From IMG/VR virus record IMGVR_UViG_3300034101_005442, positions 1 through 52,128 of that record: a stretch of DNA of 52,128 nt, one strand, 5' to 3'. The first letter of the stretch is position 1, and every line of letters begins with the position of its first letter. Positions 29,142-52,128 of this stretch are shown here, piece by piece. A program made the translations under genes and the position numbers. Under the pieces are notes generated by a model, which was not told the DNA's origin, ran no database searches, and was given only the letters and a program-made list of their open reading frames with translations. The DNA comes from a virus.

Positions 29142-31252
29142 GATTCACCCCACCCTTGTATATTAATTGGAATAACTGATCTTAATATACCCCAATTTTG
29201 ATCTGTGCTAATTGGAGCGTCTGAGCTTCTTTCATAAGAAAGCATAGGTACTGATGTGGATGTTGGCGTAGGAGTAGCTGTTGGTGTTAACGTGACCGTA
29301 GCTGTTGGCGTTAAAGTGACCGTAGCTGTTGGTGTTAACGTGACCGTAGCTGTTGGCGTTAAAGTGACCGTAGCTGTTGGTGTTAAAGTGACCGTAGCTG
29401 TTGGTGTTAACGTGACCGTAGCTGTTGGCGTTAAAGTGACCGTAGCTGTTGGTGTTAACGTGACCGTAGCTGTTTGCATAGGAGTGGGGGTTGGGGTAGG
29501 TGTCGGAGTAGGACTACTTGTTGACTGAGAACAATTACTATTTAATGATATGTATCCTGAAATAGGATCATCTATACTATATCCTGGAATAGCTTGATCT
29601 GAAAGAATTTTCCATATTCCAAAAATACTATCCGAATAATAAGAATCTAAATAATTTATATTAATTTTCCATAAACTATTATTAGAGTCATAATATAAAT
29701 ATGCATATTTTATAGCATCTATCCATACGTATGATCCGTTGTATCTAAAAGTAAAAGTATCAGGAATTCCATCGGAATTAACAATATTACAACCATAAAA
29801 AACAGCAGGATAATCTGGTGGAGGAGGTGGCGGGGTTGAAGGAGTTGGATATGGTGTTGCTGGTGGGCCCATTTGAGGAGCAACACATTCTGCAAAATTA
29901 TCTAGATTGTATGATGTTAGTTGATATCCTCCTCCTAATTGATTCATTACTGTATTAATATCTAGTCTATGCTGATGTATTTTATTTGGTCCTAAATCTA
30001 ATCCTATTAGGATTGGCTCATTGTTTATCACAAGAAACATAGGACTACCAGAATCATATAATCTTAAACCATAATTAAATTCTTGTAATTCATTATCATA
30101 GTTTGGTATATCTCTATAGATTAAATAAAACCATACATTCCACCAAAATCCTAGATGTTTTATTCCAACACTTTTATCTTGATTTAAATAAATTATAAAT
30201 ATTTTATTTATAATATGTCCATATGGTAATCCTGGAGCTAACCATTCTAATTGCATTCTCTCAAAAGCATTATCTGGTAAAACTTTAGCAAAACTTATTG
30301 AATCTGGAACATCACTATCTAATAATGCTATAGCATAATCAGTATGACTATTACCAGAAATGGGCTCAACTTCAATAATATTAATTATGTTTCTTGTTAT
30401 TGTTTCATTATTTTTTGTAATAAATCTAATATCACTACCTATTGGAGGATAAAAATCATAATGTTTACAGAATATAACATGTCTCGGACTAATAAGAGTA
30501 CCAGCTGTATGATTACTGGTGGTTGTTAAATATCCTCCAGGTAATCTTAATGTAGGATGCATATTCCATGGAGAACAACATGTTAGATCTACATCATAAG
30601 CCCAACAATTAGGATTTCTAACAAAATTTTTGGTTCTTTCTGAATCATCATCAAGTCCACTATTAATATTATTTTGATAAAAATCTAAAAATAAATCAAG
30701 ACCATATAATCCATTCTCTTGAATACCATCAAAATATCTAGATTTGCTATCCTTATTTATTGCCAGTTTTCTGATCTGATCAGAAACATATGTATTTAAT
30801 AGTGGCTTGCAATTAAAGAAATTGTAATTATCCTTATCTTCTATTACTGTTATATAATGGTTGTTTGGATAACTAGTTCCTGATTTTAGATTGGAGCTAA
30901 AATGAGTATTTCCATTAATAGCAAAAGTAGTAGATATATTTTGATCACATAGATCGTATCTAGAATTTTGAGGATATCCTGGCTCAAATAAATTTTGTAA
31001 TATATTATACTTAAATTCTCTTATGGACGTAGCAGTAAGGTCCGTACTAATAGATCTTCTACTATTATCAATAGTAAAAGTACTATTATAGATATTTTTA
31101 GCATTATCGTTAAATAATGTTTTATTATATCTTATATTTACTTTATTTAATGGTATAATACCTGTGCTACTAATATTATCAAATCTATTGTAATATGCGT
31201 TATAATTTTGATGATTATTTTGTATTTGATTATTAATATTAAAAATAGACAT
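29138..31252 (-). CDS. Virion-like protein: shared N-domain, trypsin-like protease, PT repeat
   Basis: 704 residues. Residues 15-150 are the shared N-terminal domain ([32 protein letters not shown]), also in the genes ending at 31884, 35127 and 37659. Residues 230-440 are a chymotrypsin-fold protease with a complete triad: H264 in [13 protein letters not shown]305 in [10 protein letters not shown]401 in YDSGSPMF. Residues 485-575 match the first half of the gene at 40425-41192 (YGCN ... PGY). Residues 580-685 are Thr/Pro repeat, including eight TVTLTPTA units. The tail ends INIQGWGES. Probably a modular virion protease attached through its N-domain. Confidence 0.85.
29281..29472 (-). repeat. 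24-base tandem repeat, eight copies
   Basis: Eight in-frame copies of a 24-base unit encoding TVTLTPTA. Two variable positions alternate together (GGT...AAC and GGC...AAA), making 48-base dimers, with copy five a T/A hybrid. This suggests expansion as a dimer with one later crossover or conversion. Confidence 0.9.
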
Positions 31253-31267
31253 GATTATTTCCTGAAA

Positions 31268-31909
31268 TTAATTAAGGTATCTTTCAAAATTAAAATTATT
31301 ATATGAAATACTATACCCAACAGGAATTTTAACATTATGTTCAAAGTTTTTATTTATAATAATACTGTTTGAGTTAGGCCATAAAGAAACAAAAAACTGA
31401 CAGTATGGATCAATATAAATGTAATAGTCAATTTTATAGTCTGATATATGAGACGGTAATACGTTATTATCGTGCCATTCAGTATAGGCATCAATATTAT
31501 TTATATATATAACAACATCTATATCTTTATGGTTGGTTACTCCATCAACAATGACTGATCCTGTGAGTCCTATATCTTTGAACCAAGAATAATCTTTTAG
31601 TAAAGGAACTAGTGTAGTATTGATAGTATCCCAAATTTTAGGAATGATAATTGTTGTTTGTTTTTTATATTTATCTATAACTTCTTTAATAAAATTTATA
31701 TCATATCTTCTATTAAAGCATTTTTTTAAAAAATTATCGTCTTCCTGTGCATGCTCATGTATATTTTTAGGACAACTATTATTACAAAATAAATGAGAAG
31801 CCTTAACAATATGCCCAAGTCTTAGTGATTGATATTTACATATTGCTGGACTGTTATTTCCACATCTAAACTGACAATCAAAATTAAACTTGGAGGATTG
31901 TTGCGTCAT
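31268..31909 (-). CDS. Nucleotidyltransferase-fold protein with Cys cluster
   Basis: 213 residues from the ATG at 31909, chosen over an upstream TTG because GGAGGA lies nine bases before it. Residues 10-50 hold C12, C16, C24, C42 and C46, likely a zinc-binding module. Residues 115-170 show the minimal nucleotidyltransferase signature: GLTGSVIVDGV (GS), then KDIDVVIYI (D129, D131) and KIDYYIYIDP (D161). It may transfer a nucleotide to a protein, RNA or small molecule. Its placement among virion-like genes is unusual. It overlaps its upstream neighbour by 26 bases. Confidence 0.65.
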   Translation of the reverse strand: MTQQSSKFNFDCQFRCGNNSPAICKYQSLRLGHIVKASHLFCNNSCPKNIHEHAQEDDNFLKKCFNRRYDINFIKEVIDKYKKQTTIIIPKIWDTINTTLVPLLKDYSWFKDIGLTGSVIVDGVTNHKDIDVVIYINNIDAYTEWHDNNVLPSHISDYKIDYYIYIDPYCQFFVSLWPNSNSIIINKNFEHNVKIPVGYSISYNNFNFERYLN

Positions 31910-33404
31910 ATATCTTTCCTCCAAATGAGTTGTTTACTCCGGAGTATGTCCATTCAATCTCATATTGAGTACCATTACAATTAATGGTTGTAGTATTTGT
32001 TGATTCTAACATTTCAGCTGTTATATTGCAAGCTTGTACTAAGTCAAACCAAATTTGAGTTTCTATTACTGGTCCTGGACCGTGAAAAGTGAATGAACCA
32101 TCAGCTATATAGTCACAAAAACAACATACACTATTATTTGGTACACTAGGAGTTGGTGTTGGGGTAGTTGTTAAAGTTGGTGTGGGAGTAGCTGTTGATG
32201 TGATAGTTGGTGTTGGAGTGGCCGTTGATGTGATAGTTGGTGTAGGTGTGGGTGTGGCCGTTGTTGTTATTGTTGGAGTTATAGTAGGAGTTGGTGTTGG
32301 TGACGATGTGACCGGTGGAGTATCACAAGGACCAGGATCAGATCCTGGACAATCAACATATCCTATAACTTTGCTTTTTACTGGACCAGGAGCAAGACAT
32401 GTTGAGAATATTACTACTGGTTCATTTGTTTCTAATGTTTCAGCAACCAAAACAATAAAGGTTACGCCATTATGACAATATCTGCTTTGACATACTAATT
32501 CTACTCTTGCTCCATCTAAGGTGGATGGATCGTCTACAACAAAATCAAAAGTATCAGATCTTTCTCCTAATAAAGGAACAAATCCAGGAACAGGAATTCT
32601 TGTGTGTCCAGTAGGATCGTTAACTTGTCCATTATTTAAAGAAATGTTTCTATTAGCTTGTAATATTGAAGAATCCGGAAATACTAGTATTGGTCTAAAT
32701 AAGGTAGCATCACAAACATGTCCTCCTCCACAAGTGGCTGTGAATACTCCAATATCTGGAATTTCTATTTGTTTAGGAGTTTCTAAATACCATGCGTATC
32801 CTTTAATTAGTGGCTTTAGCGTAGCATATAATATGGTTGGCGAGCATGATGGTTCCGATGGCTGAGGAATACATAATGGAGGACTAACACAAGCACAAGA
32901 TGCTGGATCAAAAGTTTGTCCTGATGGACAAATAACAGATTGGCATGATGGAGGAGTAAATCCACACAAGAATGGATTATTAATATTATCTTCTACGATA
33001 CTTATGGATTGATATCTAGGATATGATGTGTCTACCGTTTGATCAACACTGTAGTGTTTGGATCCCATATTAAATACGGTAGATAGTTTTTGATCACAAA
33101 AAGTATAGGTATAATTCTTGGGATAGCCAGCATTAAATTTATCTTGTAATATATTGTATTTAAAATCTCTAACAGATTGAGGCGTCCAATCTATAGTGAT
33201 AGAATTAGAATTATTGTTTGGTTTTTCATTATTAATATAGGTTGATAAATTATTATCTTGATCGATTAATGTATTATTGTATCTAATATTAGAATTATTA
33301 AGAGGAATAATTCCTGTATCTTGTACTGTTTCAAAACGATTATAATAGGCTAAATCATTTTGTTTATTTGATAATAATCCGCTATTGATGATATATTTTG
33401 ACAT
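31884..33404 (-). CDS. Virion-like modular protein, shared N-domain and PT repeat
   Basis: 506 residues. Residues 10-150 are the shared N-terminal domain (YYNRFETVQDTGIIPLNNSN, WTPQSVRDFKYNIL, FCDQKLSTVF). A Cys-rich patch follows (CPSGQTFDPASCACVSPPLC, about 158-185), like a short EGF-type or trypsin-inhibitor-like knot. Residues 195-360 form a beta-rich unit with paired Cys. Residues 365-425 are Thr/Pro repeats (TPTPTITSTATPT). The tail has CCFCDY. No enzyme motif seen. It starts the unit that continues into the nucleotidyltransferase, trypsin and subtilase genes. Confidence 0.75.
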   Translation of the reverse strand: MSKYIINSGLLSNKQNDLAYYNRFETVQDTGIIPLNNSNIRYNNTLIDQDNNLSTYINNEKPNNNSNSITIDWTPQSVRDFKYNILQDKFNAGYPKNYTYTFCDQKLSTVFNMGSKHYSVDQTVDTSYPRYQSISIVEDNINNPFLCGFTPPSCQSVICPSGQTFDPASCACVSPPLCIPQPSEPSCSPTILYATLKPLIKGYAWYLETPKQIEIPDIGVFTATCGGGHVCDATLFRPILVFPDSSILQANRNISLNNGQVNDPTGHTRIPVPGFVPLLGERSDTFDFVVDDPSTLDGARVELVCQSRYCHNGVTFIVLVAETLETNEPVVIFSTCLAPGPVKSKVIGYVDCPGSDPGPCDTPPVTSSPTPTPTITPTITTTATPTPTPTITSTATPTPTITSTATPTPTLTTTPTPTPSVPNNSVCCFCDYIADGSFTFHGPGPVIETQIWFDLVQACNITAEMLESTNTTTINCNGTQYEIEWTYSGVNNSFGGKIYDATILQV

Positions 33405-33442
33405 AATTTTGTACCATTATTAATATGATTATAATATATAAT

Positions 33443-33449
33443 TATACAC
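33443..33449 (-). promoter_or_regulatory. GTGTATA motif upstream of 33404 gene
   Basis: The minus strand reads GGTGTATAATTATA 20 bases after the stop codon of the previous gene and 39 bases before the start codon. There is no -35 box. It would drive the 33.4-26.6 kb protease unit. Confidence 0.5.
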
Positions 33450-33468
33450 CATATCAGCATACTATGTT

Positions 33469-35109
33469 TTATGGCACAATTGTAAAATCAATAATATTTC
33501 CTAATGTATAACAACATTCTATTGGGGGTGAACTACTGGACGGAGTAGGAGTGCAAGTAGGAGTATAAGTAGGAGTAGGAGTAGGAGAAGCACCAATACT
33601 TTTAGATGGAGTTGGGGTTAGGGCTGTAGTGCTAGTTGGAGTTGCGGTCGGAGTACGAGTTGGAGTACGAGTTGGAGTAGCAGATGCATTTGGATTGGGA
33701 GTTGGTAAATTTGGTATTAAATTATCACACATACTGCCGCCAGCACTAAATAAATATGAATCATAATAATTGTATCCATCAAGTATTACAATAAAGTTAT
33801 CTGATGCTTCAAATATATAAGGAACAGCTGAAGTTCCATTAAGTCTATTTTTGGATCCTAATAATTCTACCCAGCCGCTAACATAATCTGTTCCGGGAAT
33901 AGTAATAAAATTAGTTAATTGAGTACTATTTAATAGTGTGCCATTAACTTTAATGCTAGATAACGCATTCTGTTTAATGCCAATGAGAGCATAATACTTT
34001 GGATTATCTGTTTCTACAAGCTGACCAATCTCATTATATTGGGCACTCGTATAAGGCAATGGAGGAAGCGCTATAACATATCTTTTTGATAAATTATTAA
34101 ATGGAAAAACAGCATTCATCGACGGATCACCAATTCTATTGGTACCTATGCCTCTTTTACATTGATATACAAATATTGGATATGTTGCTGTAATCATAGT
34201 TGGACTGGTTACGGATAATTTTTCATAAGTTTGATATTTTCCTAAAGTTATTGATGTACCATTTATAGAAATAGTATTATTATTGTCTACAGATAAAATC
34301 TTAAAAGCATCTCCGGTACGAACAACTAGGTCATATCCTAATATATCAGATACTTTCTCAAGATTATATCCTATAATATTATTATAGTTTTGAGTTAATG
34401 GTAAAATAAAAGTTTTATCAAAATATTCATATCCATATATTTGACAAATTTGAGAATTACACGCACCTACCCAATTATAACAGAAACTATCTGTAAAAAC
34501 AGCTATCTTTTCTGTGCTCTCTATTTTAAATACTGGTCCCGGCAATAACTTTCCATTATTATCCCTTTCTCCTGAATTTCTATGTTTTAGCGTTTGTAAA
34601 TTTTGTAATGTGTATGTTTTTTTTACATTATTATTTAAATTAGTAATTGTAATAATATTATTGTTCGAAGTACTAACTATATTAATGTTCGAAGCTGCAT
34701 AATAGCCTTGTGAAAAGAATGGACATATATAATGTAATCTAGATAATTGCTCTATTGGTAATAGTCCTGTTCCATTACAAGCATGGACACGACGGAATAA
34801 ATAGTGGCATGTGATAGTTTTATCTGCTACTATTTTTATTCCTTTATTATCTGGTATCAATAATTCAGAATTAGAGATACTAAGTTGTTTCTGGCTAGGA
34901 AAGTTATAAGATGCTAAATTATTAGAATCTATAGTTACTGTATATGTTTCTCCAAGATATTGAATGGATACCACTGTTCCTGGTTCTCCAAGAAAGTATA
35001 AATAATCTGGATTAACTCCTCCAACAGTGTCTGGAATAACAAAATAAAACTCTTTACTTAAACAAGTGTCTGGCTGTGATTGAGTTTGTATATTATTTGA
35101 AACTTCCAT
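33469..35109 (-). CDS. IgGFc-binding-like N-domain protein with PT repeat
   Basis: 546 residues. Residues 15-465 fit the IgGFc_binding (adhesin-type) pattern: LSKEFYFVIPDTVGG, then NKGIKIVADKTITCHYLF, LLPIEQLSRLHYI, IESTEKIAVFTDSF, LSKRYVIALPPLPY, and YIFEASDNFIVILDGYNYYDSYLFSAGG. The family binds extracellular glycoproteins or cell surfaces. Residues 480-530 are Thr/Pro/Ser linker, and the tail PPIECCYTLGNIIDFTIVP carries the recurrent CCY...P end. It is probably an adhesin displayed on the particle, read from the 35.9 kb motif after the gene upstream. Confidence 0.7.
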   Translation of the reverse strand: MEVSNNIQTQSQPDTCLSKEFYFVIPDTVGGVNPDYLYFLGEPGTVVSIQYLGETYTVTIDSNNLASYNFPSQKQLSISNSELLIPDNKGIKIVADKTITCHYLFRRVHACNGTGLLPIEQLSRLHYICPFFSQGYYAASNINIVSTSNNNIITITNLNNNVKKTYTLQNLQTLKHRNSGERDNNGKLLPGPVFKIESTEKIAVFTDSFCYNWVGACNSQICQIYGYEYFDKTFILPLTQNYNNIIGYNLEKVSDILGYDLVVRTGDAFKILSVDNNNTISINGTSITLGKYQTYEKLSVTSPTMITATYPIFVYQCKRGIGTNRIGDPSMNAVFPFNNLSKRYVIALPPLPYTSAQYNEIGQLVETDNPKYYALIGIKQNALSSIKVNGTLLNSTQLTNFITIPGTDYVSGWVELLGSKNRLNGTSAVPYIFEASDNFIVILDGYNYYDSYLFSAGGSMCDNLIPNLPTPNPNASATPTRTPTRTPTATPTSTTALTPTPSKSIGASPTPTPTYTPTCTPTPSSSSPPIECCYTLGNIIDFTIVP

Positions 35110-35126
35110 AAATTAACTTTCTTATT

Positions 35127-35861
35127 TTAAGATACATATTCGCATGAGTATAATCTAACAATAGCTTTGGATACCTCATCACTAAAAAATGGTATTTCTA
35201 TATCACTTTGTAGACTGTTAATAGACTGAACATTAATCCAATCAGATAGTGGTGTAGACATATCGTCAAAAAATTTAATTTGTAAGACTAAGCATACTGT
35301 TGGAATACTAGAAACTATAACACGAACTTTACTTATAGAGTTTTCAACAAAATAAGTAAAATTAAAAGTTAAATCACATTCATCTGGTGGACCAACACGC
35401 GGCTTAGGAGGTTTGATGTTACAATCTAATTTATGATCAGATTCATTAACTCTGGCAAATTGATGATTTATAGGATAGGATAATGAACTATCAGAAAATC
35501 TTGTCCAATGAGTATTACCAGCTTGAAATACTATAGAAATTTTTTGATCACATAAATTATATGAATTAACAATTGGATAATTTTCATCAAAATTATTTGT
35601 AAGTATATTATATGTAAATTCTCTAATTGATTGTGGAGTCCAAGTTAAAGTAATTGATCTAGCATCATTATTTGATGTGAGATTACCAACTTTATGAACA
35701 ACACTATTAAAATTTTGATCAAATAAGGTATTATGATATCTAATATTTGGATTATTTTCTGAAATAATCCCAGTATTTGAAACATTATCAGACTTATTAA
35801 AATAGGCTAATGAATTTTGACTATTTATGGAAAGACCACTATTTATAATATAATTTGACAT
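35127..35861 (-). CDS. Shared N-domain plus duplicated beta domain
   Basis: 244 residues. Residues 10-150 are the shared N-domain (LAYFNKSDN, TGIISENNPNIRYHNTLFDQN, WTPQSIREFTYNIL, LCDQKISIVF). Residues 160-240 (CDLTFNF, VCLVLQIKFFDD, DWINVQS, RLYSC) match residues 1-85 of the gene at 36077-37633 (CTISYIL, KCLVLQTKFYDL, DWIDTEY, RLYSC), so this second domain is also shared. No Thr/Pro linker is present. It is a minimal member of the mosaic family and informs the domain boundaries. Confidence 0.75.
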   Translation of the reverse strand: MSNYIINSGLSINSQNSLAYFNKSDNVSNTGIISENNPNIRYHNTLFDQNFNSVVHKVGNLTSNNDARSITLTWTPQSIREFTYNILTNNFDENYPIVNSYNLCDQKISIVFQAGNTHWTRFSDSSLSYPINHQFARVNESDHKLDCNIKPPKPRVGPPDECDLTFNFTYFVENSISKVRVIVSSIPTVCLVLQIKFFDDMSTPLSDWINVQSINSLQSDIEIPFFSDEVSKAIVRLYSCEYVS

Positions 35862-35878
35862 GCTTTTACTCTTATTAA

Positions 35879-35971
35879 CTAAGATAAATATAGTAATCTA
35901 TACACCGTATTAGTACTACTTTCTAGTGTAAAGTAACACGATACTAGGGGAGGAGTAGAACAATATCCCAT
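35879..35971 (-). pseudogene. Possible decayed PT-protein tail (30 codons)
   Basis: A 30-codon frame (CSTPPLVSCYFTLESS...) between the micro-ORF and the next gene. TPPLVSCYFTL resembles the post-linker segment SPPIECCYTL of the gene at 33469. The ribosome site is weak. A degenerate leftover of tail exchange is the best explanation; it may not be translated. Confidence 0.3.
35899..35905 (-). promoter_or_regulatory. GTGTATA motif upstream of 35861 gene
   Basis: The minus strand reads GGTGTATAGATTA 38 bases before the start codon at 35861, inside a 215-base region with no convincing long gene. No -35 box is seen. It would start the 35861-33469 unit. Confidence 0.5.
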
Positions 35972-35983
35972 AATTTTTTACTA

Positions 35984-36064
35984 TCATGGAATAATAATTA
36001 TTGTTTGAGTTAATGAATAACAACAATCGTCTTCATTGCTTTGAATTTTTATATTATTTTGCAT
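35984..36064 (-). CDS. 26-residue micro-ORF, CCY-tail remnant
   Basis: Starts 12 bases after the stop codon of the PT-repeat gene. The peptide begins MQNNIKIQSNEDDCCYSLTQ and ends TIIIIP. Its end recalls ECCYTLGNIIDFTIVP, the tail of the 33469 gene, and its start recalls that gene's VSNNIQTQSQPDTC. It therefore looks like an N-terminus joined directly to a C-terminus, as if the middle had been deleted. It may be translated by coupling, or be only a remnant. Confidence 0.35.
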   Translation of the reverse strand: MQNNIKIQSNEDDCCYSLTQTIIIIP

Positions 36065-36076
36065 ATTTAAAATCTA

Positions 36077-37633
36077 TTAACATGGGAATAATACGACATA
36101 AACAGTGTCTCTTCTCGGAGTAAAAGTAGATATTCCAAAACTTCCTAAGGTTGGTCCAGGATACCAATACAAATCAGTATATTTCCAGTAACCTTCGTAC
36201 TGAATTTCGTATCTTAAATTGTATGATAACTTATTAAATATAAATGATTGTGCTACCCATTGTCTTACATCTGAAGATGTGCTATCGTTAAAGTTTCTAA
36301 TTTTGATTAATGCATTGTATGCTAGATTACTTGTTAGATAACTAATACCATCTATAGTTGGAGTGGCGTAAAGATCATATGAGTTCCTCATATATAATTC
36401 AAACCTATTATATTGTAATGTTTTAGGATTCGAAGGCATGCCAAAGACTGGAAAGTGAAAAGGCGTGTTATAATAATTCACATTCTTAGAATCACATAAG
36501 GTATCTATATCAATAGGCACAGATTTTTTATAGCTTGTATAATTCCTGGTTGGCAATTGTGATATGTGAACAAATGGAGTAAACAAATAATTACAATAAA
36601 TGGGTGGAGGAGCTGATGGGGTGAGAGTTGGAGTTACTGTTGGAGTTGGAGTTCGAGTTGGAGTTCGAGTTGGGGTCGGAGTTCGAGTCGGAGTTCGAGT
36701 TGGGGTTTGAGTTCGAGTTGGAGTTCGAGTTGGGGTTACTGTTGATGTGATAGTTGGTGTTGGAGTAACTGTTGGAGTTATAGTTAGAGTTGGGGTTATA
36801 CTTGGAGTAATACTAATTGTGGGAGTAACAGAAGCTGTTGGCGTTGGAGAAGCTCCTGGAGATTTTGTTACTGTTGGTGTTGGCGTAGCGGTTGGAGTTG
36901 CTGTTGATGTTGGCGTAGCGGTTGGAGTTGCTGTTGATGTTGGCGTAGCGGTTGGAGTTGCTGTTGATGTTGGAGTAGCGGTTGGAGTTGCTGTTGATGT
37001 TGGAGTAGCGGCTGGGGTTGATGTTGATGTTGCAGTTAATGTTGGGGTAACTGTTGAAGTAACCGTAATAGTTGGCGTGGGCGTTGGAGTATGAGTGATA
37101 GTTTGCGTTGGAGTTGGTGTTGGAGAAGGAACAATACATCTGATACTACACAAATGCACAGACAGATCGCAAGTATTTAAATCATGGTCCACAGTTAATT
37201 TAATCTTTCTGGGAATCATTATGGGATTGAATGGAGTATCTAATTCATCAATATCGGCGGGTCTTACGTGGGCATTTGTGATGCTAAATGGTGTTGATCC
37301 GCAAGCATTTACAATAGCATCTGAATCATATTCTGTAATAATGTCACACGGAACATCGTCTAATGGCGGATCAGGATCTGGTACGGCACAACATGAATAA
37401 AGTCTAAATTCTATTTTTGATGTTTCATTGTCAAAAGATAATTCTGTTTCTGTTTCTAAATTAAATATATATTCAGTATCTATCCAATCAGTTATAACAT
37501 TATTTGATAAATCATAAAATTTAGTTTGCAAAACTAAGCACTTAAGTAAATCAGAGATAGTTAATTTTAAGAAGAGCGTATTGTTTTCAATACGATGATC
37601 TAGGATATATGATATTGTACATTGTGTAGCCAT
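36077..37633 (-). CDS. PT-repeat virion-like protein
   Basis: 518 residues. Residues 1-85 match the C-terminal domain of the gene at 35127 (see there). Residues 90-168 hold three Cys-containing strands. Residues 170-345 are one of the longest Thr/Pro linkers here: TPTSTATPTA decapeptides, then TRTPTRTPTPT. The C-terminal 170 residues (APPPIYCNYLFTPFVHISQLP, LRYEIQYEGYWKY) form a beta-rich head, perhaps for binding. Layout: small N-domain, stalk, head, as in a short fibre. Opposite-strand Val/Gly frames are shadows of the linker. Confidence 0.75.
   Translation of the reverse strand: MATQCTISYILDHRIENNTLFLKLTISDLLKCLVLQTKFYDLSNNVITDWIDTEYIFNLETETELSFDNETSKIEFRLYSCCAVPDPDPPLDDVPCDIITEYDSDAIVNACGSTPFSITNAHVRPADIDELDTPFNPIMIPRKIKLTVDHDLNTCDLSVHLCSIRCIVPSPTPTPTQTITHTPTPTPTITVTSTVTPTLTATSTSTPAATPTSTATPTATPTSTATPTATPTSTATPTATPTSTATPTATPTPTVTKSPGASPTPTASVTPTISITPSITPTLTITPTVTPTPTITSTVTPTRTPTRTQTPTRTPTRTPTPTRTPTRTPTPTVTPTLTPSAPPPIYCNYLFTPFVHISQLPTRNYTSYKKSVPIDIDTLCDSKNVNYYNTPFHFPVFGMPSNPKTLQYNRFELYMRNSYDLYATPTIDGISYLTSNLAYNALIKIRNFNDSTSSDVRQWVAQSFIFNKLSYNLRYEIQYEGYWKYTDLYWYPGPTLGSFGISTFTPRRDTVYVVLFPC
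36875..37020 (-). repeat. 30-base tandem repeat, about five copies
   Basis: Nearly identical 30-base units, GTTGGAGTTGCTGTTGATGT plus TGGMGTAGCG on the plus strand, encode a TPTSTATPTA decapeptide in the stalk of the 36077 gene. The first copies carry C and the later copies A at the M position. Copy number is likely to vary between relatives. Confidence 0.85.
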
Positions 37634-45180: not shown

Positions 45181-46278
45181 TTAGGGTACGTTAAATATTG
45201 TTGGATTAATATTATAAGAACGAGTTGGTGTTGGCGTTGATAATGATCTTGTTTTTGTTGGCGTTGGTGTTGATGTGGATACTGATTTTGTCTTGGTGGG
45301 AGTAGGAGTTACAGATGGTGCTCGTGTTTTTGTTGGAGTTGGTGTTGGAGCTCTTGTGGAGGTTACACTAGGAGTTGGAGTAGGATTACAACAATTTTCA
45401 GCAGCTTTTTTAGCTTGAGTACAATTTATTACTGTTGCTGATGTTATTCTCATACTAGTATAAGGATTGCCCATACCAGGATTAAAAGGAATACTGTTAC
45501 TAATTGGAACTCTGAGAATCCATGAAACTTGAGTACTATTATTAGCGTATGAATCCTTAAAAGTATATTCAATATAATCTTGTCCATTAATAGTAACACA
45601 TTTTCCACCAACTAAGATTATAGCATGTTTAGTTTTTAATAGATTAGTACAATTTTCTTTTATTTTTGGTCTTACCCATTTTGGTGGCATAGTATAAATA
45701 TACGGAGGAGAACCAGTTATTGTTCCGTCTTGTACACTCTTAAGCCAATCTTCAAAGTTTGGTGGAAAAACAGCAGTATCCAAATCGCTCATTATGGGGC
45801 CAGTAGAGCATAAACTATCAACTAAATTTTTTTGATTTCTGTATGATGTTGAATTAACTTTATAGTTTATAGTAACATAACATTGACGAGGATCACAAGG
45901 ATCACTATATGTTTTTCCTGGACATTTAACGGGAACTTTAAGTCCGGATCGTCCTGAATTTGCAAAAAACGCAAAAGTTTTAAATGCATTTGTTGCTCTG
46001 TTGATAAAATCAGTTTTTTCTGTACTAGATCCTTTTCCGTATTTACAATCTGCTAATGTATTAATATATGTTATTCCATTAGCGGGCATTGGCATACTAT
46101 TGATCTTTGTTTGATTACACGCTATAATAGCATTATAATCTATATTAATAGCACAAGAAGCTGCTAATGATTGCAATAACGTATTGGTCATGCAAGTTAA
46201 TTGATCAACACCTTCCTTTTTTTGGTTAATATCTAATGGTATCTGATGTAAACAGTTTTTAATATTATTACATGGCAT
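45181..46278 (-). CDS. Papain-like (C1) fold protein with PT linker
   Basis: 365 residues. The layout recalls papain-fold peptidases: VDQLTCMTNTLLQSLAAS puts a candidate nucleophile at C29 at the head of a helix; TGPIMSDLDTAVFPPNFEDWL and GSPPYIYT correspond to the GPVxVxxD...F...GxY region; TKHAIILVGG gives H218; YTFKDSYANN replaces the usual N-S-W with D-S-Y. Spacing of DQ to Cys is shorter than in papain, so catalysis is uncertain. Residues of about 300-355 are Thr/Pro linker, and the end is TIFNVP. Confidence 0.5.
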   Translation of the reverse strand: MPCNNIKNCLHQIPLDINQKKEGVDQLTCMTNTLLQSLAASCAINIDYNAIIACNQTKINSMPMPANGITYINTLADCKYGKGSSTEKTDFINRATNAFKTFAFFANSGRSGLKVPVKCPGKTYSDPCDPRQCYVTINYKVNSTSYRNQKNLVDSLCSTGPIMSDLDTAVFPPNFEDWLKSVQDGTITGSPPYIYTMPPKWVRPKIKENCTNLLKTKHAIILVGGKCVTINGQDYIEYTFKDSYANNSTQVSWILRVPISNSIPFNPGMGNPYTSMRITSATVINCTQAKKAAENCCNPTPTPSVTSTRAPTPTPTKTRAPSVTPTPTKTKSVSTSTPTPTKTRSLSTPTPTRSYNINPTIFNVP

Positions 46279-48296: not shown

Positions 48297-48685
48297 GGTC
48301 TAAATATTCCTGGTTTAGATTGTAGATTAGGATCGTCATATTTATTTTGACATACTGTTGAGATATAAACTTTTATATTAATATCATCGTTTTTCAGTGT
48401 CATAAAATACTTAGATCCTAAATTATCTGAGCGAATTAACTTATTGGTATAATCTAAAAGAATACTTATGAATGACTCGTCATTAGTGTCTATGGGCTCA
48501 GGACTATATTCGATATCAAACTTTTTTAAGCTATCATCTATTTTGGTACTATAAAAGAGTTTATCATTAACAAATACGAATATGTATCTTCCAACAGAAT
48601 CAACAAGATTTGTTGTGCAGGATAAATAGTCTGAATTCATGACTGTGGCTGGATCTTCTAAGTTATTAATAGATATTTCTGACAT
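48293..48685 (-). CDS. Small beta-rich protein, unknown
   Basis: 130 residues (VGRYIFVFVNDKLFYSTKID, SFISILLDYTNKLIRSDNLG, KYFMTLKNDDINIKVYISTV). Alternating polar and hydrophobic residues suggest a small beta-sandwich; two Cys, no motif. It overlaps the 47970 gene by four bases and follows the 48701 gene by 15. It belongs to the 48976 unit. Function unknown. Confidence 0.5.
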   Translation of the reverse strand: MSEISINNLEDPATVMNSDYLSCTTNLVDSVGRYIFVFVNDKLFYSTKIDDSLKKFDIEYSPEPIDTNDESFISILLDYTNKLIRSDNLGSKYFMTLKNDDINIKVYISTVCQNKYDDPNLQSKPGIFRP

Positions 48686-48700
48686 TAATAATTCCTGTGA

Positions 48701-48976
48701 TTATTCAGAAGCGGCGTCTTCTGATATTTGATTAATTATGGGAAATGATGGATTATCAGAATTAAAAGCTTGATTGTATAAGAAATATGTGGTGTTGGCC
48801 GAATAATTTTCATTTCTTAACTTTTGATTATCTAGTCTGTCATAATTGATGCCAAATTTAATATCATTAGGATAATGAAAGTTTGAGAAATTTTTACTAT
48901 CTTCTGAAAGTTGGCTAGGTAAATTTTGGCCAAATCTATTGTAGTAAACTTTATTGTTATATGTAAAATATATCAT
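48701..48976 (-). CDS. Small GVNY-module protein
   Basis: 91 residues from the ATG at 48976, chosen because AAGGAACC lies about ten bases upstream and because the module begins there; the longer frame to 49120 would cross the GTGTATA motif. TYNNKVYYNRFGQ, FSNFHYPNDIKFGINYDRLDN and YFLYNQAF match the C-terminal half of the 40425 gene. It is the first gene of the leftward virion-like cluster, at the junction with the rightward array. Likely a free-standing version of a reusable domain. Confidence 0.7.
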   Translation of the reverse strand: MIYFTYNNKVYYNRFGQNLPSQLSEDSKNFSNFHYPNDIKFGINYDRLDNQKLRNENYSANTTYFLYNQAFNSDNPSFPIINQISEDAASE

Positions 48977-49002
48977 TGTTATATGGTTCCTTAATATCAT
49001 AG

Positions 49003-49009
49003 TATACAC
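49003..49009 (-). promoter_or_regulatory. GTGTATA motif upstream of 48976 gene
   Basis: The minus strand reads TTGTGTATACTATG, 27 bases before the start codon at 48976. No gene lies upstream on this strand, so this is a true start of transcription toward the left, not a read-through region. Confidence 0.5.
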
Positions 49010-49371
49010 AATTATAAATGAAAATGTGTTGCTGTTAGGCTCTTGTCTCTTGGGAATAGAAACACAAGATCTAGAAACATGATAAATAATGGGGTAAATA
49101 GGGGAGTTTAGGTGATACATTTTGATTTATTGAGTGCTTATTGTGTTTGGATGTCCTTGGGGTTTTGAGAAAAATCTGGAAATGATCGATAAAAACAGAA
49201 AAACCCCCTCTTATGTTTTACGGTTATTCTACCCCGCAAATTTGACGTAAAGCCTTACGAGATAATGACTTACAACGAGGGAGCATAGCAAATGGTGTGC
49301 CAAAGAATAATATATTTTATGGTATGGTATTTGCTCATGAAAAAAATCTCAAAAAAAACATTTGTACACTA
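49010..49371. other. Intergenic divergence region with degenerate cassette block
   Basis: Non-coding gap between the leftward cluster and the rightward array. It holds a leftward GTGTATA start (49003) and, from 49242 to about 49335, a degenerate copy of the block seen at 49963, 50989 and 51829 (TTGACGTAAAGCCTTACGAG, then GCATAGCAAATGG, GAATAATATATTTTATGG). The remaining bases, including GGGGTTTT near 49158 and AAAACCCC near 49200 that could pair, show no gene. The base composition changes here from A+T rich to roughly balanced. Confidence 0.7.
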
Positions 49372-49399
49372 TTGACGCCTAAAGAATCTTTGGTATAAT
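49372..49399 (+). promoter_or_regulatory. Sigma-70 type promoter P1
   Basis: TTGACG at 49372-49377, 16 bases, TATAAT at 49394-49399, followed by GTCGATA. It precedes the 49446 gene by 46 bases. Confidence 0.85.
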
Positions 49400-49445
49400 G
49401 TCGATATAAGAAGTAAGAGAGAAAAAGAAAAAAAAGGAAAAGAAC

Positions 49446-49613
49446 ATGACATACTTCATTCAGATTTTCGATGCTTGGGATTGTGAGTTGGATTTCATCG
49501 GCCCGTTCAACACTGAGAACGAAGCACATGAGGCCGGTTGGAGCAAGTGGGAAGGTGACGATAACGCCTATGGTAGCCGAATCATCAAAAGGCTTCCCGC
49601 TTCGACTCACTGA
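49446..49613 (+). CDS. Small protein, paralogue of 50214 gene
   Basis: 55 residues (MTYFIQIFDAWDCELDFIGP, then FNTENEAHEAGWSKWEGDD and IIKRLPASTH). About 65% identical by eye to the 54-residue gene at 50214. The pattern suggests a compact alpha/beta domain with a conserved Trp, Cys and acidic residues. The ribosome site is GGAAAAGAAC. Transcribed from P1. Probably an early protein that alters a host function; family unknown. Short size means it is easily missed by gene finders. Confidence 0.75.
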   Translation: MTYFIQIFDAWDCELDFIGPFNTENEAHEAGWSKWEGDDNAYGSRIIKRLPASTH

Positions 49614-49631
49614 AAAATATTCTCTAAGGGC

Positions 49632-49660
49632 TTGACGAACGATTGCCGATAACGTACACT
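49632..49660 (+). promoter_or_regulatory. Sigma-70 type promoter P2
   Basis: TTGACG at 49632-49637, 17 bases, TACACT at 49655-49660. The spacer contains GATTGCCGATAA, which is also in P4. It precedes the acidic protein gene by 30 bases. Confidence 0.75.
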
Positions 49661-49690
49661 AGAATCATCACAAGGAAAAAGGAAAGAATC

Positions 49691-49933
49691 ATGAGCAACG
49701 ATTTTATCTACGACATGAGCGAAATCAACGAAGAGAACATGTTCAAGGCTTGGGAAGAAATGGTAGCCGAAGATGGTAGCATCTGGGAAACGGGATACGA
49801 TGATGATACCGATTACATTCCGGGCCTTGACGATGGCGAAGGATACGACCCGATCATGGGCGATGGCGAAGGATTCGATGAAACGGACGATGGATGGCTG
49901 GACGATTTCCAGGGCGAAGAGGATTTTGCCTAG
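49691..49933 (+). CDS. Highly acidic small protein
   Basis: 80 residues from the ATG at 49691, chosen for the GGAAAAAGGAAAG ribosome site; an earlier in-frame start at 49643 would lie inside the P2 promoter. 29 of 80 residues are Asp or Glu, with one Lys and no Arg, so the net charge is near -28. DDDTDYIPGLDDGEGYD and GDGEGFDETDDGWLDD are near repeats, like EF-hand or DNA-mimic stretches. Early phage DNA mimics (Ocr, Arn, DMP classes) are acidic like this, but no family is recognised. Confidence 0.7.
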   Translation: MSNDFIYDMSEINEENMFKAWEEMVAEDGSIWETGYDDDTDYIPGLDDGEGYDPIMGDGEGFDETDDGWLDDFQGEEDFA

Positions 49934-49942
49934 GGGATACAT

Positions 49943-49956
49943 CCCCCACTAGGGGG
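49943..49956 (+). other. Stem-loop after acidic gene
   Basis: CCCCC-ACTA-GGGGG directly after the stop codon at 49931-49933. No T run follows, so it is not a standard terminator. Similar stem-loops at 50970-50981 (CCCC-ACTA-GGGG) and 51395-51410 occur at other gene ends in this array. Confidence 0.6.
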
Positions 49957-49962
49957 AAAGGC

Positions 49963-50135
49963 TTGACGTAAACCCTTGCTACATAAGCACTTACGTCAAA
50001 TTTTCGGCCGAAAAATCGTCGTAAACCCTTATGCCACAACGACTTACATCAAATGCCCACAGCAAATGCTATGCCGAAAATAATATATTCTATGGTATGA
50101 TATTTGCTGAACATAACCTTACGATATTGTAAGGA
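49963..50135. repeat. Multi-palindrome intergenic block, copy B
   Basis: Elements in order: GACGTAA...TTACGTC inverted pair around TGCT...AGCA; TTTTCGGCCGAAAA palindrome; a second degenerate CGTCGTAAACCC...CTTACATC pair; GCAAATGCTATGCC; GAATA-type palindrome; TATGGTATGATATTTGCT; CCTTACGATATTGTAAGG (50118-50135), eight of nine bases pairing. It sits between the acidic gene and promoter P3. The same order occurs at 50989 and 51829. Confidence 0.9.
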
Positions 50136-50146
50136 AACTTTTTTGT

Positions 50147-50174
50147 TGACGATTCAAGATACCATGGTATAATG
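50147..50174 (+). promoter_or_regulatory. Sigma-70 type promoter P3
   Basis: TTGACG at 50147-50152, 16 bases, TATAAT at 50169-50174, followed by GTCGATA. It lies immediately after the CCTTACGATATTGTAAGG palindrome, which could be an operator or a weak terminator. Confidence 0.85.
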
Positions 50175-50213
50175 TCGATATAAAGAGAAAAGGAAAAGAA
50201 AAAGGAAAATAAA

Positions 50214-50378
50214 ATGACATACTTTGCTCAAATCGTAGACGCTTGGGATTGTGAACTAGACTTCCTTGGCCCATTCTATACTGAGGAACAGGCGACCGCC
50301 GCCGCTTTCGACAAGTGGGACGGTGAGGATGGATGTAGGGTAAATATCATCAAAAGACTTCCGGCTTTTTCTCACTGA
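50214..50378 (+). CDS. Small protein, paralogue of 49446 gene
   Basis: 54 residues (MTYFAQIVDAWDCELDFLGP, FYTEEQATAAAFDKWDGEDG, IIKRLPAFSH). MTYFxQIxDAWDCELDFxGPFxTE and IIKRLPA are shared with the 49446 protein. Both sit under a promoter with the same layout, so the cassette (promoter, gene) was probably duplicated. Ribosome site AAGGAAAA. Function unknown; conserved Trp, Cys and acidic residues are candidates for a binding surface. Confidence 0.75.
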   Translation: MTYFAQIVDAWDCELDFLGPFYTEEQATAAAFDKWDGEDGCRVNIIKRLPAFSH

Positions 50379-50398
50379 AAAAATATTTTCTAGTGGGG

Positions 50399-50426
50399 TT
50401 GACGTAGGATTGCCGATAAGTATACT
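50399..50426 (+). promoter_or_regulatory. Sigma-70 type promoter P4
   Basis: TTGACG at 50399-50404, 16 bases, TATACT at 50421-50426. It is 17 bases from the start codon at 50444, leaving room only for a very short leader. Confidence 0.75.
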
Positions 50427-50443
50427 AGGGAAAAGGAAAAGAA

Positions 50444-50638
50444 ATGACACTGAATACAGAAATCTCGACGAGTTATGATGGTAAGCGGTATACGGGCTTG
50501 GTTGTGGAAATCAAGATGGTACAGAATCGTGAGTTGATCACGATCATGATTGAAGATGATTCGCGGAATGATGGCATAGGGTATCGTAGCCTTTATGCCG
50601 ATAAGATGAGCGAAACATCCGAAAACCTTTTCGCATAA
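50444..50638 (+). CDS. Small protein, paralogue of 51209 gene
   Basis: 64 residues. SYDGKRYTGLVVEIKMVQNR, then ITIMIEDDS, GIGYRSLYADKMSE. It aligns with the 51209 protein through YxxGxxxTGxxVxVxxxxxNR, the hydrophobic ITI/FTI stretch, and GYRS(L/M)Y(A/T)DK. The fold looks like a small SH3-type barrel. Ribosome site AAAAGGAAAAG. Followed after eight bases by the 50647 gene, probably co-transcribed. Confidence 0.7.
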   Translation: MTLNTEISTSYDGKRYTGLVVEIKMVQNRELITIMIEDDSRNDGIGYRSLYADKMSETSENLFA

Positions 50639-50646
50639 GGAAAAAA

Positions 50647-50967
50647 ATGAATAGTTTTGCAAGATTAAATCGTATTGGAATGGAATCGAATGCTACTAAA
50701 AATAAGGTAAGATACTTGCGTGAAAAATATAATCTTGGATATGATATGCAACCCAAGGAAAAAACAATGTCCGTTTCCGAAATGATTTGCAAACTAGAAT
50801 CCCATGGATTGATCGTGCAGCGGTTGGAGCACGATAATGGTACGCTACACGTTGACGGCTATCATCCTCCCCATTGTAAGGGGCTGCCCGATTGGCTGTA
50901 TGATTGCCCCGGTTGGGGGGTATCGTCATGCGGGGCTTCTAGGGTTTTCATGTTCAAGGTGGGCTAA
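50647..50967 (+). CDS. Small protein with Cys/His C-terminus, unknown
   Basis: 106 residues. A basic helical N-terminus (NSFARLNRIGMESNATKNKV), a middle segment VSEMICKLESHGLIVQRLEHD resembling a helix, and a C-terminal part with YHPPHCKGLPDWLYDCPGWG. The His and Cys could bind a metal. It follows the 50444 gene and a GGAAAAAA ribosome site, with a CCCC-ACTA-GGGG stem-loop after its stop. Function unknown; likely an early protein. Confidence 0.6.
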   Translation: MNSFARLNRIGMESNATKNKVRYLREKYNLGYDMQPKEKTMSVSEMICKLESHGLIVQRLEHDNGTLHVDGYHPPHCKGLPDWLYDCPGWGVSSCGASRVFMFKVG

Positions 50968-50988
50968 CCCCCCACTAGGGGTACACAC

Positions 50989-51118
50989 TCGACGTAAACC
51001 CTTGCTGTATAAGCACTTACGTCAAATTTTCGGCCGCAAAATCGTCGTAAACCCTTATGGCATAACGACTTACGACGAATCGACATAGCAAACGATATGC
51101 CAAAGAATAATATATTCT
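50989..51118. repeat. Multi-palindrome intergenic block, copy C
   Basis: GACGTAAACCCTTGCT...AGCACTTACGTC, TTTTCGGCCGCAAAA, a second CGTCGTAAACCC...CTTACGACG pair, then GCAAACGATATGCC and GAATAATATATTC. Unlike copies B and D, the TATGGTATAATATTTGCT and CCTTACGATATTGTAAGG parts are replaced by an A-rich stretch before promoter P5. Confidence 0.9.
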
Positions 51119-51150
51119 CTGAAAAAAATAAAAAAAATAAAAGATTTTGC

Positions 51151-51178
51151 TTGCAACCTAAAGATGAGCCTGTATAAT
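51151..51178 (+). promoter_or_regulatory. Sigma-70 type promoter P5
   Basis: TTGCAA at 51151-51156, 16 bases, TATAAT at 51173-51178, followed by GCCGATA. It precedes the 51209 gene by 30 bases. Confidence 0.8.
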
Positions 51179-51208
51179 GCCGATATAGAAAGAACAGGAG
51201 AAAGAAAA

Positions 51209-51406
51209 ATGGAAATGAAAATCGGAAACGTTGCCAAGGTCGAATATGCTACGGGTGAGAAGTTTACGGGTGAAATCGTAAAGGTTCGCACCATGTCCGA
51301 CAATCGTATTCTGTTCACGATCCACGATGAAACCGTAGGGTATCGTTCGATGTATACCGACAAGTGTGTGTCTCTGGAAACGCTGGAACTACAGCCCCTT
51401 GATTGA
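51209..51406 (+). CDS. Small protein, paralogue of 50444 gene
   Basis: 65 residues from the ATG at 51209, supported by an AGGAG ribosome site; an earlier frame start at 51164 would lie in the promoter. MEMKIGNVAKVEYATGEKFT, then GEIVKVRTMSDNR, ILFTIHDE, VGYRSMYTDK. Shares TG(x)IVxVRTxxxNR and GYRSMYxDK with the 50444 protein. Likely a small beta barrel (SH3-like) with unknown target. A C4-G4 stem-loop spans its stop codon. Confidence 0.7.
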   Translation: MEMKIGNVAKVEYATGEKFTGEIVKVRTMSDNRILFTIHDETVGYRSMYTDKCVSLETLELQPLD

Positions 51407-51411
51407 GGGGG

Positions 51412-51440
51412 TTGTGCCTATAAAAAAAGTTTGCTACACT
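51412..51440 (+). promoter_or_regulatory. Sigma-70 type promoter P6
   Basis: TTGTGC at 51412-51417, 17 bases, TACACT at 51435-51440. It is the weakest match of the array, 32 bases before the 51473 gene. Confidence 0.6.
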
Positions 51441-51472
51441 ACATCATCATCCCAACCCATAGGAAAACAACA

Positions 51473-51799
51473 ATGACCACTAGCCCTATCCTTCGTGAGT
51501 TTCGCCGCGGCATCATCAACTGGTTTGAGGGTATCGCAATCCCTCACCAGCCTAGCGTTGCCGATGGTGTGTATACGCCGATTCGCAGCGAAAAGGTGAT
51601 GAAGTTCAATCGTAAGGCTCTCCGCCAAATCGGAAAGGCTAAGGCTGAAAAGGTTGATCCCCGCTATAGTGGGGGTGATGATCGTATGATCGTAAAGGTT
51701 GGAAAGCCCGGCTCGGCTGAACGTAAGGCAGCATTAGCAGAACAGTATGCCGCTATTCTCGCCTGCGGAGAGGAAGTATCCCCCTTTTCGGAGGGGTAA
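51473..51799 (+). CDS. Small basic protein, unknown
   Basis: 108 residues from the ATG at 51473, with AGGAAAAC upstream. ILREFRRGIINWFEGIAIPH, VMKFNRKALRQIGKAKAEKV, AALAEQYAAILACGEE. Basic and mainly helical, with two charged segments (FNRKALRQIGKAKAEK and GSAERKAALAEQ) that could bind nucleic acid. It is the last complete gene before block copy D. Function unknown; likely an early phage protein. Confidence 0.6.
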   Translation: MTTSPILREFRRGIINWFEGIAIPHQPSVADGVYTPIRSEKVMKFNRKALRQIGKAKAEKVDPRYSGGDDRMIVKVGKPGSAERKAALAEQYAAILACGEEVSPFSEG

Positions 51800-51828
51800 G
51801 GGTATATACCCCCATTAGTGGCACACAC

Positions 51829-52000
51829 TTGACGTAAACCCTTGCTGCATAAGCACTTACGTCAAATTTTCGGCCGCAAAATCGTCGTAAACCCTTACTG
51901 TATAAGCACTTACGTCGAATGACTATAGCAAACGATATGCCGAAGAATAACTTATTCTATGGTATAATATTTGCTCTAGGAAACCTTACGATATTGTAAG
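51829..52000. repeat. Multi-palindrome intergenic block, copy D
   Basis: The most complete copy: GACGTAAACCCTTGCT...AGCACTTACGTC twice, TTTTCGGCCGCAAAA between them, GCAAACGATATGCC, GAATAACTTATTC, TATGGTATAATATTTGCT, and CCTTACGATATTGTAAG (51984-52000). A nine-T run follows the last palindrome before promoter P7. It thus could act as a terminator for the 51473 gene as well as an operator. Confidence 0.9.
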
Positions 52001-52011
52001 TTTTTTTTTGC

Positions 52012-52039
52012 TTGCAATCTAAAGAATGGTCTGTATAAT
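52012..52039 (+). promoter_or_regulatory. Sigma-70 type promoter P7
   Basis: TTGCAA at 52012-52017, 16 bases, TATAAT at 52034-52039, then GTCGATA. It precedes a gene that continues past the window. Confidence 0.85.
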
Positions 52040-52072
52040 GTCGATAGATAAGAAAGAAAGAGAGAAAGAGAA

Positions 52073-52128
52073 ATGAACAGCCTCGATAAGATTCTGGCAT
52101 CTATGCGGTCTGGCAAGTATGGTAGCGT
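52073..52128 (+). CDS. Partial small gene at window edge
   Basis: Begins MNSLDKILASMRSGKYGS and is cut by the window edge. A GAAAGAGAGAAAGAG ribosome region and promoter P7 lie upstream. The opening resembles MNSFARL of the 50647 gene, but too little is visible to call a paralogue. Confidence 0.6.
   Translation, partial: MNSLDKILASMRSGKYGS

What the first reader, a model, noticed from the sequence alone, without database searches (positions are those of the whole stretch)
49446..50378. Paralogous micro-proteins below usual size cut-offs
49446-49613 and 50214-50378 encode 55- and 54-residue proteins that share MTYFxQIxDAWDCELDFxGPF and IIKRLPA. They are too short for common gene-calling thresholds, yet the pair is conserved with codon-like changes and placed identically in the cassette. 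This supports real translation and a family not obvious from known proteins.
Basis: seen in the sequence. Interest (0 to 1): 0.7.

Follow-up and report, generated by a model that had tools for sequence, protein, structure and literature searches.

The report
Swappable phage micro-protein gene pair
Two tiny neighbouring genes in this uncultured phage are real, related protein genes, and copies of them are traded between different phages as interchangeable units behind near-identical on-switches, which suggests a small early tool against the host whose exact target is unknown.

Summary
49446-49613 and 50214-50378 encode 55- and 54-residue proteins, 63% identical, each with a sigma-70-like promoter, a purine-rich ribosome-binding site and another promoter just after the stop. 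The family occurs in 16 further IMG/VR contigs. No copy examined has an internal stop, and changes fall mostly at third codon positions. No curated protein family, isolated phage or plasmid matched. Two details of the finding are off: 54-55 residues is within reach of ordinary gene callers (recalled), and the genes that follow the two copies differ.

Two contigs share 95.7% identical flanks but carry different types of the gene (72% identical). Phages whose neighbouring sigma-like genes are 23% identical carry proteins 51/54 identical. The p2 cassette begins with a stem-loop plus promoter that recurs in relatives and resembles the PeSL cassettes reported for T4-like phages. The predicted fold is beta-beta-alpha-beta.

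Best explanation: an early accessory protein that binds a host factor (polymerase, defence or another enzyme), kept as interchangeable types. Gene, selection and exchange are supported by data; timing, binding and target are inferred. New family, familiar kind of system.

The parts
49446..49613 (+). micro-protein gene p1 (55 aa, 'I-type': MTYFIQIF...), TGA stop included
50214..50378 (+). micro-protein gene p2 (54 aa, 'A-type': MTYFAQIV...), TGA stop included
49372..49399 (+). sigma-70-like promoter of p1 (TTGACG-16-TATAAT, TG before the second hexamer)
50146..50173 (+). sigma-70-like promoter of p2 (TTGACG-16-TATAAT, TG before the second hexamer)
50117..50144 (+). stem-loop CCTTACGATATTGTAAGG plus T-run, terminator-like, 12 nt before the -35 box of p2: PeSL-like stem-loop/promoter element
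49426..49445 (+). purine-rich ribosome-binding region of p1
50194..50213 (+). purine-rich ribosome-binding region of p2
49632..49660 (+). promoter-like site right after p1, upstream of the acidic 80-aa gene (TTGACG-17-TACACT)
50399..50426 (+). promoter-like site right after p2, upstream of the 64-aa gene (TTGACG-16-TATACT)
49691..49933 (+). neighbour gene after p1: acidic 80-aa protein, conserved in relatives in other gene orders
50444..50638 (+). neighbour gene after p2: 64-aa protein, conserved in relatives, paralogue of 51212-51406
49943..50095 (+). copy of the ~153-bp intergenic repeat (other copies 50969-51121 and 51809-51961) that holds two 27-bp quasi-palindromes

Best explanation
The two ORFs are paralogous members of a new family of about 55-residue phage proteins predicted to fold as beta-beta-alpha-beta. 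Each is a small transcription unit in what looks like the early, host-polymerase-transcribed accessory region of a tailed phage. The protein most likely acts as a small globular binder that blocks or redirects one host protein soon after infection (host RNA polymerase, a defence protein or another enzyme). Because the same promoter and stem-loop sequences and the same gene ends recur, homologous recombination can put one type of the coding sequence in place of another; the window has kept both types. Supported by data: the family, purifying selection, the conserved promoter-like sites, and exchange of the coding sequence between otherwise different phages. Inferred: early expression (from host-type promoters and genome position), binding of a host target, and selection for type switching. 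Unknown: the target.
For: Family and selection. Promoters: sites starting 56-74 nt before the ATG in 9 of the 11 gene copies in the 10 sources scanned, and starting 19-27 nt after the stop in 10 of 11 (L011 lacks both by this pattern, L022 the upstream one). Exchange: L010 vs L023 gene 117/162 matching against flank 742/775, Fisher p = 1.8e-17; control pair L006 vs L010 96.9% vs 99.0%, p = 0.06; window p2 vs L012 5' flank 89/94 but gene 106/162, p = 1.9e-8, while L012's coding sequence is 93.3% identical to window p1. Incongruence: L010 and L005 micro-proteins 51/54 identical while sigma-like F4 is 23% and F3 34%; p1 and L023 87% while terminase is 56%. PeSL-like element: 21 of 32 distinct stem-loops of this type lie 10-23 nt before a promoter, in 14 loci. 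Fold: mean pLDDT 84.6.
Against: No functional assay and no significant fold match: best PDB Foldseek E = 1.0, best VIA-align Z = 4.6 with unrelated proteins tied, best viral match E = 0.061 to an unnamed protein. The host is unknown. Only 14 of 81 loci with a neighbouring gene (p122) have the micro-protein within the held flanks, so it seems dispensable. The stem-loop was not found before p1 or at the gene in L005, L006, L010, L011, L022 or L023. Recombination was inferred from pairwise identity, not from a formal recombination test. Strong purifying selection within each type is not what rapid host-driven diversification would give.
Confidence: 0.5

Rival explanations
1. It is a host RNA polymerase modulator that works like T7 Gp2: a small early protein that binds RNA polymerase and shuts off host promoters so that the phage's own sigma-like factor (F4) takes over.
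For: T7 Gp2 chains are among the structural matches (4llg_M Z 4.0, rmsd 2.8, 50 aligned; Foldseek E 3.4), as is RNA polymerase-interacting protein YkzG (4njc, Z 2.8). The phages carry a sigma-70 region 2-like gene on the opposite strand nearby.
Against: The Z values are within the range the tool calls ordinary, and unrelated proteins (PaaB, SbtB) score equally. No sequence similarity. The sigma region 2 match is just below Pfam's cut-off (22.5 vs 24 bits).
Confidence: 0.15
2. It is an anti-defence protein (anti-CRISPR or similar), one of an array of small genes under near-identical early promoters, as in archaeal viruses.
For: Same architecture as described for archaeal viruses in PMC11065993 (section 6 read): small single genes sharing a strong regulatory sequence. 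Type switching and mosaic distribution fit. AcrIF9 is a weak structural match (6w1x_I Z 3.0).
Against: No match to PADLOC models (that library covers defence systems, not a full anti-defence set). Fold match not meaningful. Host and its defences unknown.
Confidence: 0.2
3. The genes are passive passengers between promoter elements: translated and weakly useful, kept by hitch-hiking with shuffled promoter cassettes.
For: Patchy presence (14 of 81 loci) and changing gene order.
Against: dN/dS far below 1 in all pairs with a finite synonymous distance and third-position bias in 5 of 5 pairs counted show constraint on the protein.
Confidence: 0.1
4. The conservation reflects DNA or RNA function (regulatory repeat), and the ORFs are incidental.
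For: The surroundings are full of conserved repeats and promoter-like sites.
Against: Differences concentrate at third codon positions, gene and flank conservation are decoupled, and no Rfam family matches.
Confidence: 0.02

Closest known systems
PeSL cassettes (promoter early stem-loop) of T4-like phages (Arbiol et al. 2010; Comeau et al. 2014; originals not held; known here from passages of PMC4503421)
   Same: Stem-loop next to a host-type early promoter between small accessory genes; gene order shuffled and coding units exchanged between related phages.
   Different: Not shown to be a T4-like phage; terminase nearest to Bacillus phages of the Slash/Staley kind and Microcystis phage MaeS at about 25%. 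The element found here precedes p2 but not p1.
Early anti-defence gene arrays of archaeal viruses (PMC11065993)
   Same: Many small single genes, each behind a near-identical strong early promoter.
   Different: Bacterial sigma-70-type promoters; no anti-defence activity shown; protein family unrelated as far as tested.
T7 Gp2 and other small early phage inhibitors (p56, AcrIF9)
   Same: Size and small alpha/beta fold class.
   Different: No sequence similarity; structural scores at background level.
DUF7336 (PF24024)
   Same: One of 12 family members gives a weak Pfam hit (E 0.028); a DUF7336 phage protein is among the weak viral fold matches (rank 40, E 0.34).
   Different: No member reaches E <= 0.001; membership not met by sequence.

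Membership tests
PeSL cassette (T4-like phages) | early host-type promoter joined to a stem-loop between genes | tested here: met
   Met for p2 (stem-loop 50117-50134, -35 box 12 nt on) and seen in 14 loci; not found for p1.
PeSL cassette (T4-like phages) | associated with shuffling or exchange of small genes | tested here: met
   Gene-versus-flank identity contrasts and gene-order changes; that the element itself drives the exchange is not shown.
PeSL cassette (T4-like phages) | located in a T4-like myovirus genome | tested here: inconclusive
   Terminase hits are not to T4-like phages; an 845-aa protein has distant cyanophage hits, some named baseplate wedge. No whole-genome classification was made.
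PeSL cassette (T4-like phages) | early transcription in infection | not testable with these tools
   No transcriptome.
DUF7336 (PF24024) | sequence match to the Pfam model | tested here: not met
   Best E 0.028 in 1 of 12 members scanned.
T7 Gp2-like RNA polymerase inhibitor | Gp2 fold | tested here: inconclusive
   4llg_M Z 4.0, rmsd 2.8, 50 aligned; unrelated chains tie.
T7 Gp2-like RNA polymerase inhibitor | binds host RNA polymerase | not testable with these tools
   Needs a binding assay.
Anti-defence (Acr-like) protein | inhibits a host defence system | not testable with these tools
   Host unknown; no assay.
SPOR domain | match to PF05036 | tested here: not met
   No Pfam hit for p1 or p2; only a neighbouring 'YKVY' protein comes near (E 0.0015, 19.3 vs 21 bits).

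The most novel reading that the evidence does not exclude
The micro-protein is an interchangeable anti-host effector: the phage group keeps several types of the same small inhibitor and swaps the coding sequence precisely between ribosome-binding site and stop, behind constant stem-loop/promoter cassettes, so that the type carried matches the host variant. It would be a bacteriophage counterpart of the early anti-defence arrays of archaeal viruses, recognisable by its promoter element alone.
Probability: 0.25. Interest if true: 0.65.

Novelty: new member of a known kind. Interest (0 to 1): 0.4.

Why it matters
Small early phage proteins are a rich source of host inhibitors, but many are missed by similarity searches. 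Here selection on the frame and exchange of the coding unit between phages with different core genes mark one such family as functional without any known relative, and the stem-loop/promoter element gives a handle for listing its fellow genes in this uncultured phage group.

Tried and rejected
Known-family searches: PHROGs, Pfam, NCBIfam and PADLOC gave nothing at E <= 0.001 for the family; the solved-structure sequence search gave only E >= 0.48. Isolated phages: the weak tblastn hits in Mycobacterium phage FlagStaff (E 3) and three Gordonia phages (E 1 to 7) lie on the strand opposite to the annotated genes (looked at for FlagStaff and Archis), so I treat them as chance; Enterococcus phage Revolver (E 7) and two plasmid hits (E 0.2 and 3) were likewise dismissed. 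A scan of the genome collection (84,980 species) found no relative (0 of 14 pattern-matched stretches). RNA explanation: no Rfam match in 48600-52128. Host: PF00124 (photosystem reaction-centre protein) in 0 of 6 records; PF00476 (DNA polymerase A) in 0 of 4; a gene neighbour (p122) turned up in one contig of a gammaproteobacterial metagenome bin, which may be a binned phage contig; host left open. The 27-bp palindromes: arms outside the core do not pair more than shuffled arms (44 distinct instances in 31 loci), so I favour a conserved-sequence dyad over a covarying hairpin. My first stem-loop script was too strict (1 hit near a promoter in 9 sources) and was replaced, whose pattern was written after seeing the window and L004 examples, so its 21 of 32 is descriptive, not a blind test. 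The idea that the 'YKVY' neighbours share the fold was rejected: predicted beta-beta-beta-alpha. Literature: searches; no paper on this family was seen in their listings, which says little for subscription journals.

Full report
Observation. The two ORFs exist as described. They share 63% identity over the full length and find each other in the record with E = 1.9e-20. Each has a purine-rich ribosome-binding site and a promoter-like TTGACG-16-TATAAT upstream; a further promoter-like site lies just after each stop. In the 3.5-kb region scanned, 19 promoter-like sites were found against 9.5 +/- 3.4 in shuffles; the four sites beside the two genes match 11, 11, 10 and 9 of 12 consensus positions.

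Family. Scans of IMG/VR found relatives in 12 contigs and four more with a divergent type, MTYFAEIVDHWEEELDILGPF...: 16 contigs besides the window. The 12 records were searched whole and each holds exactly one copy with no internal stop; only the window has two. The cysteine and the DAWDCE motif are not invariant once the divergent type is included. No relative appeared in isolated phages, plasmids or the genome collection, with the limits of exact-peptide patterns. Among 81 loci that carry a neighbouring gene (p122; 80 viral loci kept of 82, plus one metagenome bin), 14 have the micro-protein within the held flanks: it is accessory.

Selection. Nei-Gojobori dN/dS is 0.22 for p1-p2 and 0.02 to 0.42 for the other pairs with a finite, non-zero value; in several pairs synonymous sites are saturated and the ratio is not meaningful, and L006-L010 has no amino-acid change. 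Differences at codon positions 1/2/3: p1-L012 0/1/10, p2-L003 3/0/14, L005-L010 1/2/11, L006-L010 0/0/5, p1-L023 4/1/23. The reading frame is under strong constraint.

Exchange of the coding unit. There are two main types, A (p2, L003 to L010) and I (p1, L012, L023), with L011 and L022 apart. L010 and L023 share the same neighbours in the same order, and flanks 742/775 identical, but the gene is 117/162 identical because one has type A and the other type I (p = 1.8e-17; control pair L006-L010 p = 0.06). In L012 the promoter region matches that of window p2 (89/94), while the coding sequence matches window p1 (154/165) and not p2 (106/162). Across phages the gene disagrees with other genes: L010 and L005 proteins are 51/54 identical although the sigma-like F4 is 23% and F3 34% identical; L012 and L023 are 85% although F4 is 24% and F3 36%. 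Terminase splits the 12 records in the same way as F3 and F4: 75-79% to the window for six, 56-57% for the other six. This is best explained by horizontal exchange through recombination at the shared gene ends and promoters. I did not run a formal recombination test.

Cassette. Upstream of p2 lies a stem-loop with a T-run (50117-50144) 12 nt before the -35 box. The same element recurs: of 32 distinct stem-loops of this pattern, 21 lie 10-23 nt before a promoter, in 14 loci. It resembles the PeSL elements described for T4-like phages, which I know from a passage in PMC4503421, the cited titles and recall; the original papers are not held. Farther upstream is a 153-bp repeat with two 27-bp quasi-palindromes 53 bp apart; the motif occurs as 44 distinct instances in 31 loci and looks like a conserved DNA dyad, perhaps an operator.

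Protein. The AlphaFold model is beta-beta-alpha-beta, mean pLDDT 84.6, from nine sequences. Fold searches gave no significant match: PDB best E 1.0 (PaaB), viral best E 0.061 (unnamed), VIA-align best Z 4.6 (a designed miniprotein) with T7 Gp2 at 4.0, cyanobacterial SbtB at 4.4, phage p56 at 3.7 and AcrIF9 at 3.0. These only say that the fold class is one that small binders often use.

Phage. The window is a 52,128-base viral record with a long minus-strand block that includes the terminase and likely virion genes and a plus-strand region of small genes at its right end. Terminase is nearest, at about 25%, to Bacillus phages of the Slash/Staley kind and Microcystis phage MaeS; an 845-aa protein has distant hits in 133 records, 130 of them named Synechococcus, Prochlorococcus or cyanophage; 0 of 6 records have a PF00124 gene. 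Host unresolved.

Interpretation. Real genes under selection, host-type promoters, accessory distribution and exchange between phages point to an early host-directed protein. Which host factor it binds cannot be told; host RNA polymerase and anti-defence are the leading options and neither is shown. PMC11065993 (abstract and section 6 read) describes a similar architecture in archaeal viruses, where two such genes were validated as anti-defence; PMC11323111 (abstract and section 5 read) reviews small phage proteins that bind host regulators or polymerase.

Verdict. The family is new to the libraries searched, but the kind of system (small early accessory genes shuffled behind promoter cassettes) is known.

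Noticed in passing
window 49247-51913 (+), also L006, L010, L012, L023 and others: 27-bp quasi-palindrome like GTAAACCCTTATGGCATAACGACTTAC, seven copies in the window, six of them in pairs 53 bp apart; 44 distinct instances in 31 loci; arms do not pair beyond shuffles, so an operator-like DNA dyad is more likely than an RNA hairpin.
   Followed up: partly
L012 9382-9507, 10927-11070, 11959-12096; L004 9392-9526, 10945-11094, 11892-12038; L010, L005, L023: Second micro-protein family ('YKVY', 42-50 aa), up to three copies per locus, one member a near-miss to the SPOR domain (E 0.0015, below cut-off), predicted beta-beta-beta-alpha with pLDDT 93.
   Followed up: partly
window 50444-50638 and 51212-51406: The 64-aa protein after p2 and a 65-aa protein further on are paralogues too (about 35-40% identity), again each with its own promoter-like site.
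   Followed up: no
window 24348-25762 (-) and relatives: Genes F3 (weak match to a D5-like regulator) and F4 (sigma-70 region 2-like, just below cut-off) lie within about 4.4 kb of the micro-protein in relatives but about 24 kb away in the window, where a long block of minus-strand genes stands between.
   Followed up: partly
window 29138-37633 (-), 45181-46278 (-): Several proteins match phrog_15511 (unknown function) over a short stretch; in the 45181-46278 protein this is a PTPTPTKT-rich C-terminal part.
   Followed up: no
promoter-like sites across loci: Many promoters carry CCGATAA or CGATA between or just after the two hexamers, a possible shared regulatory mark.
   Followed up: no
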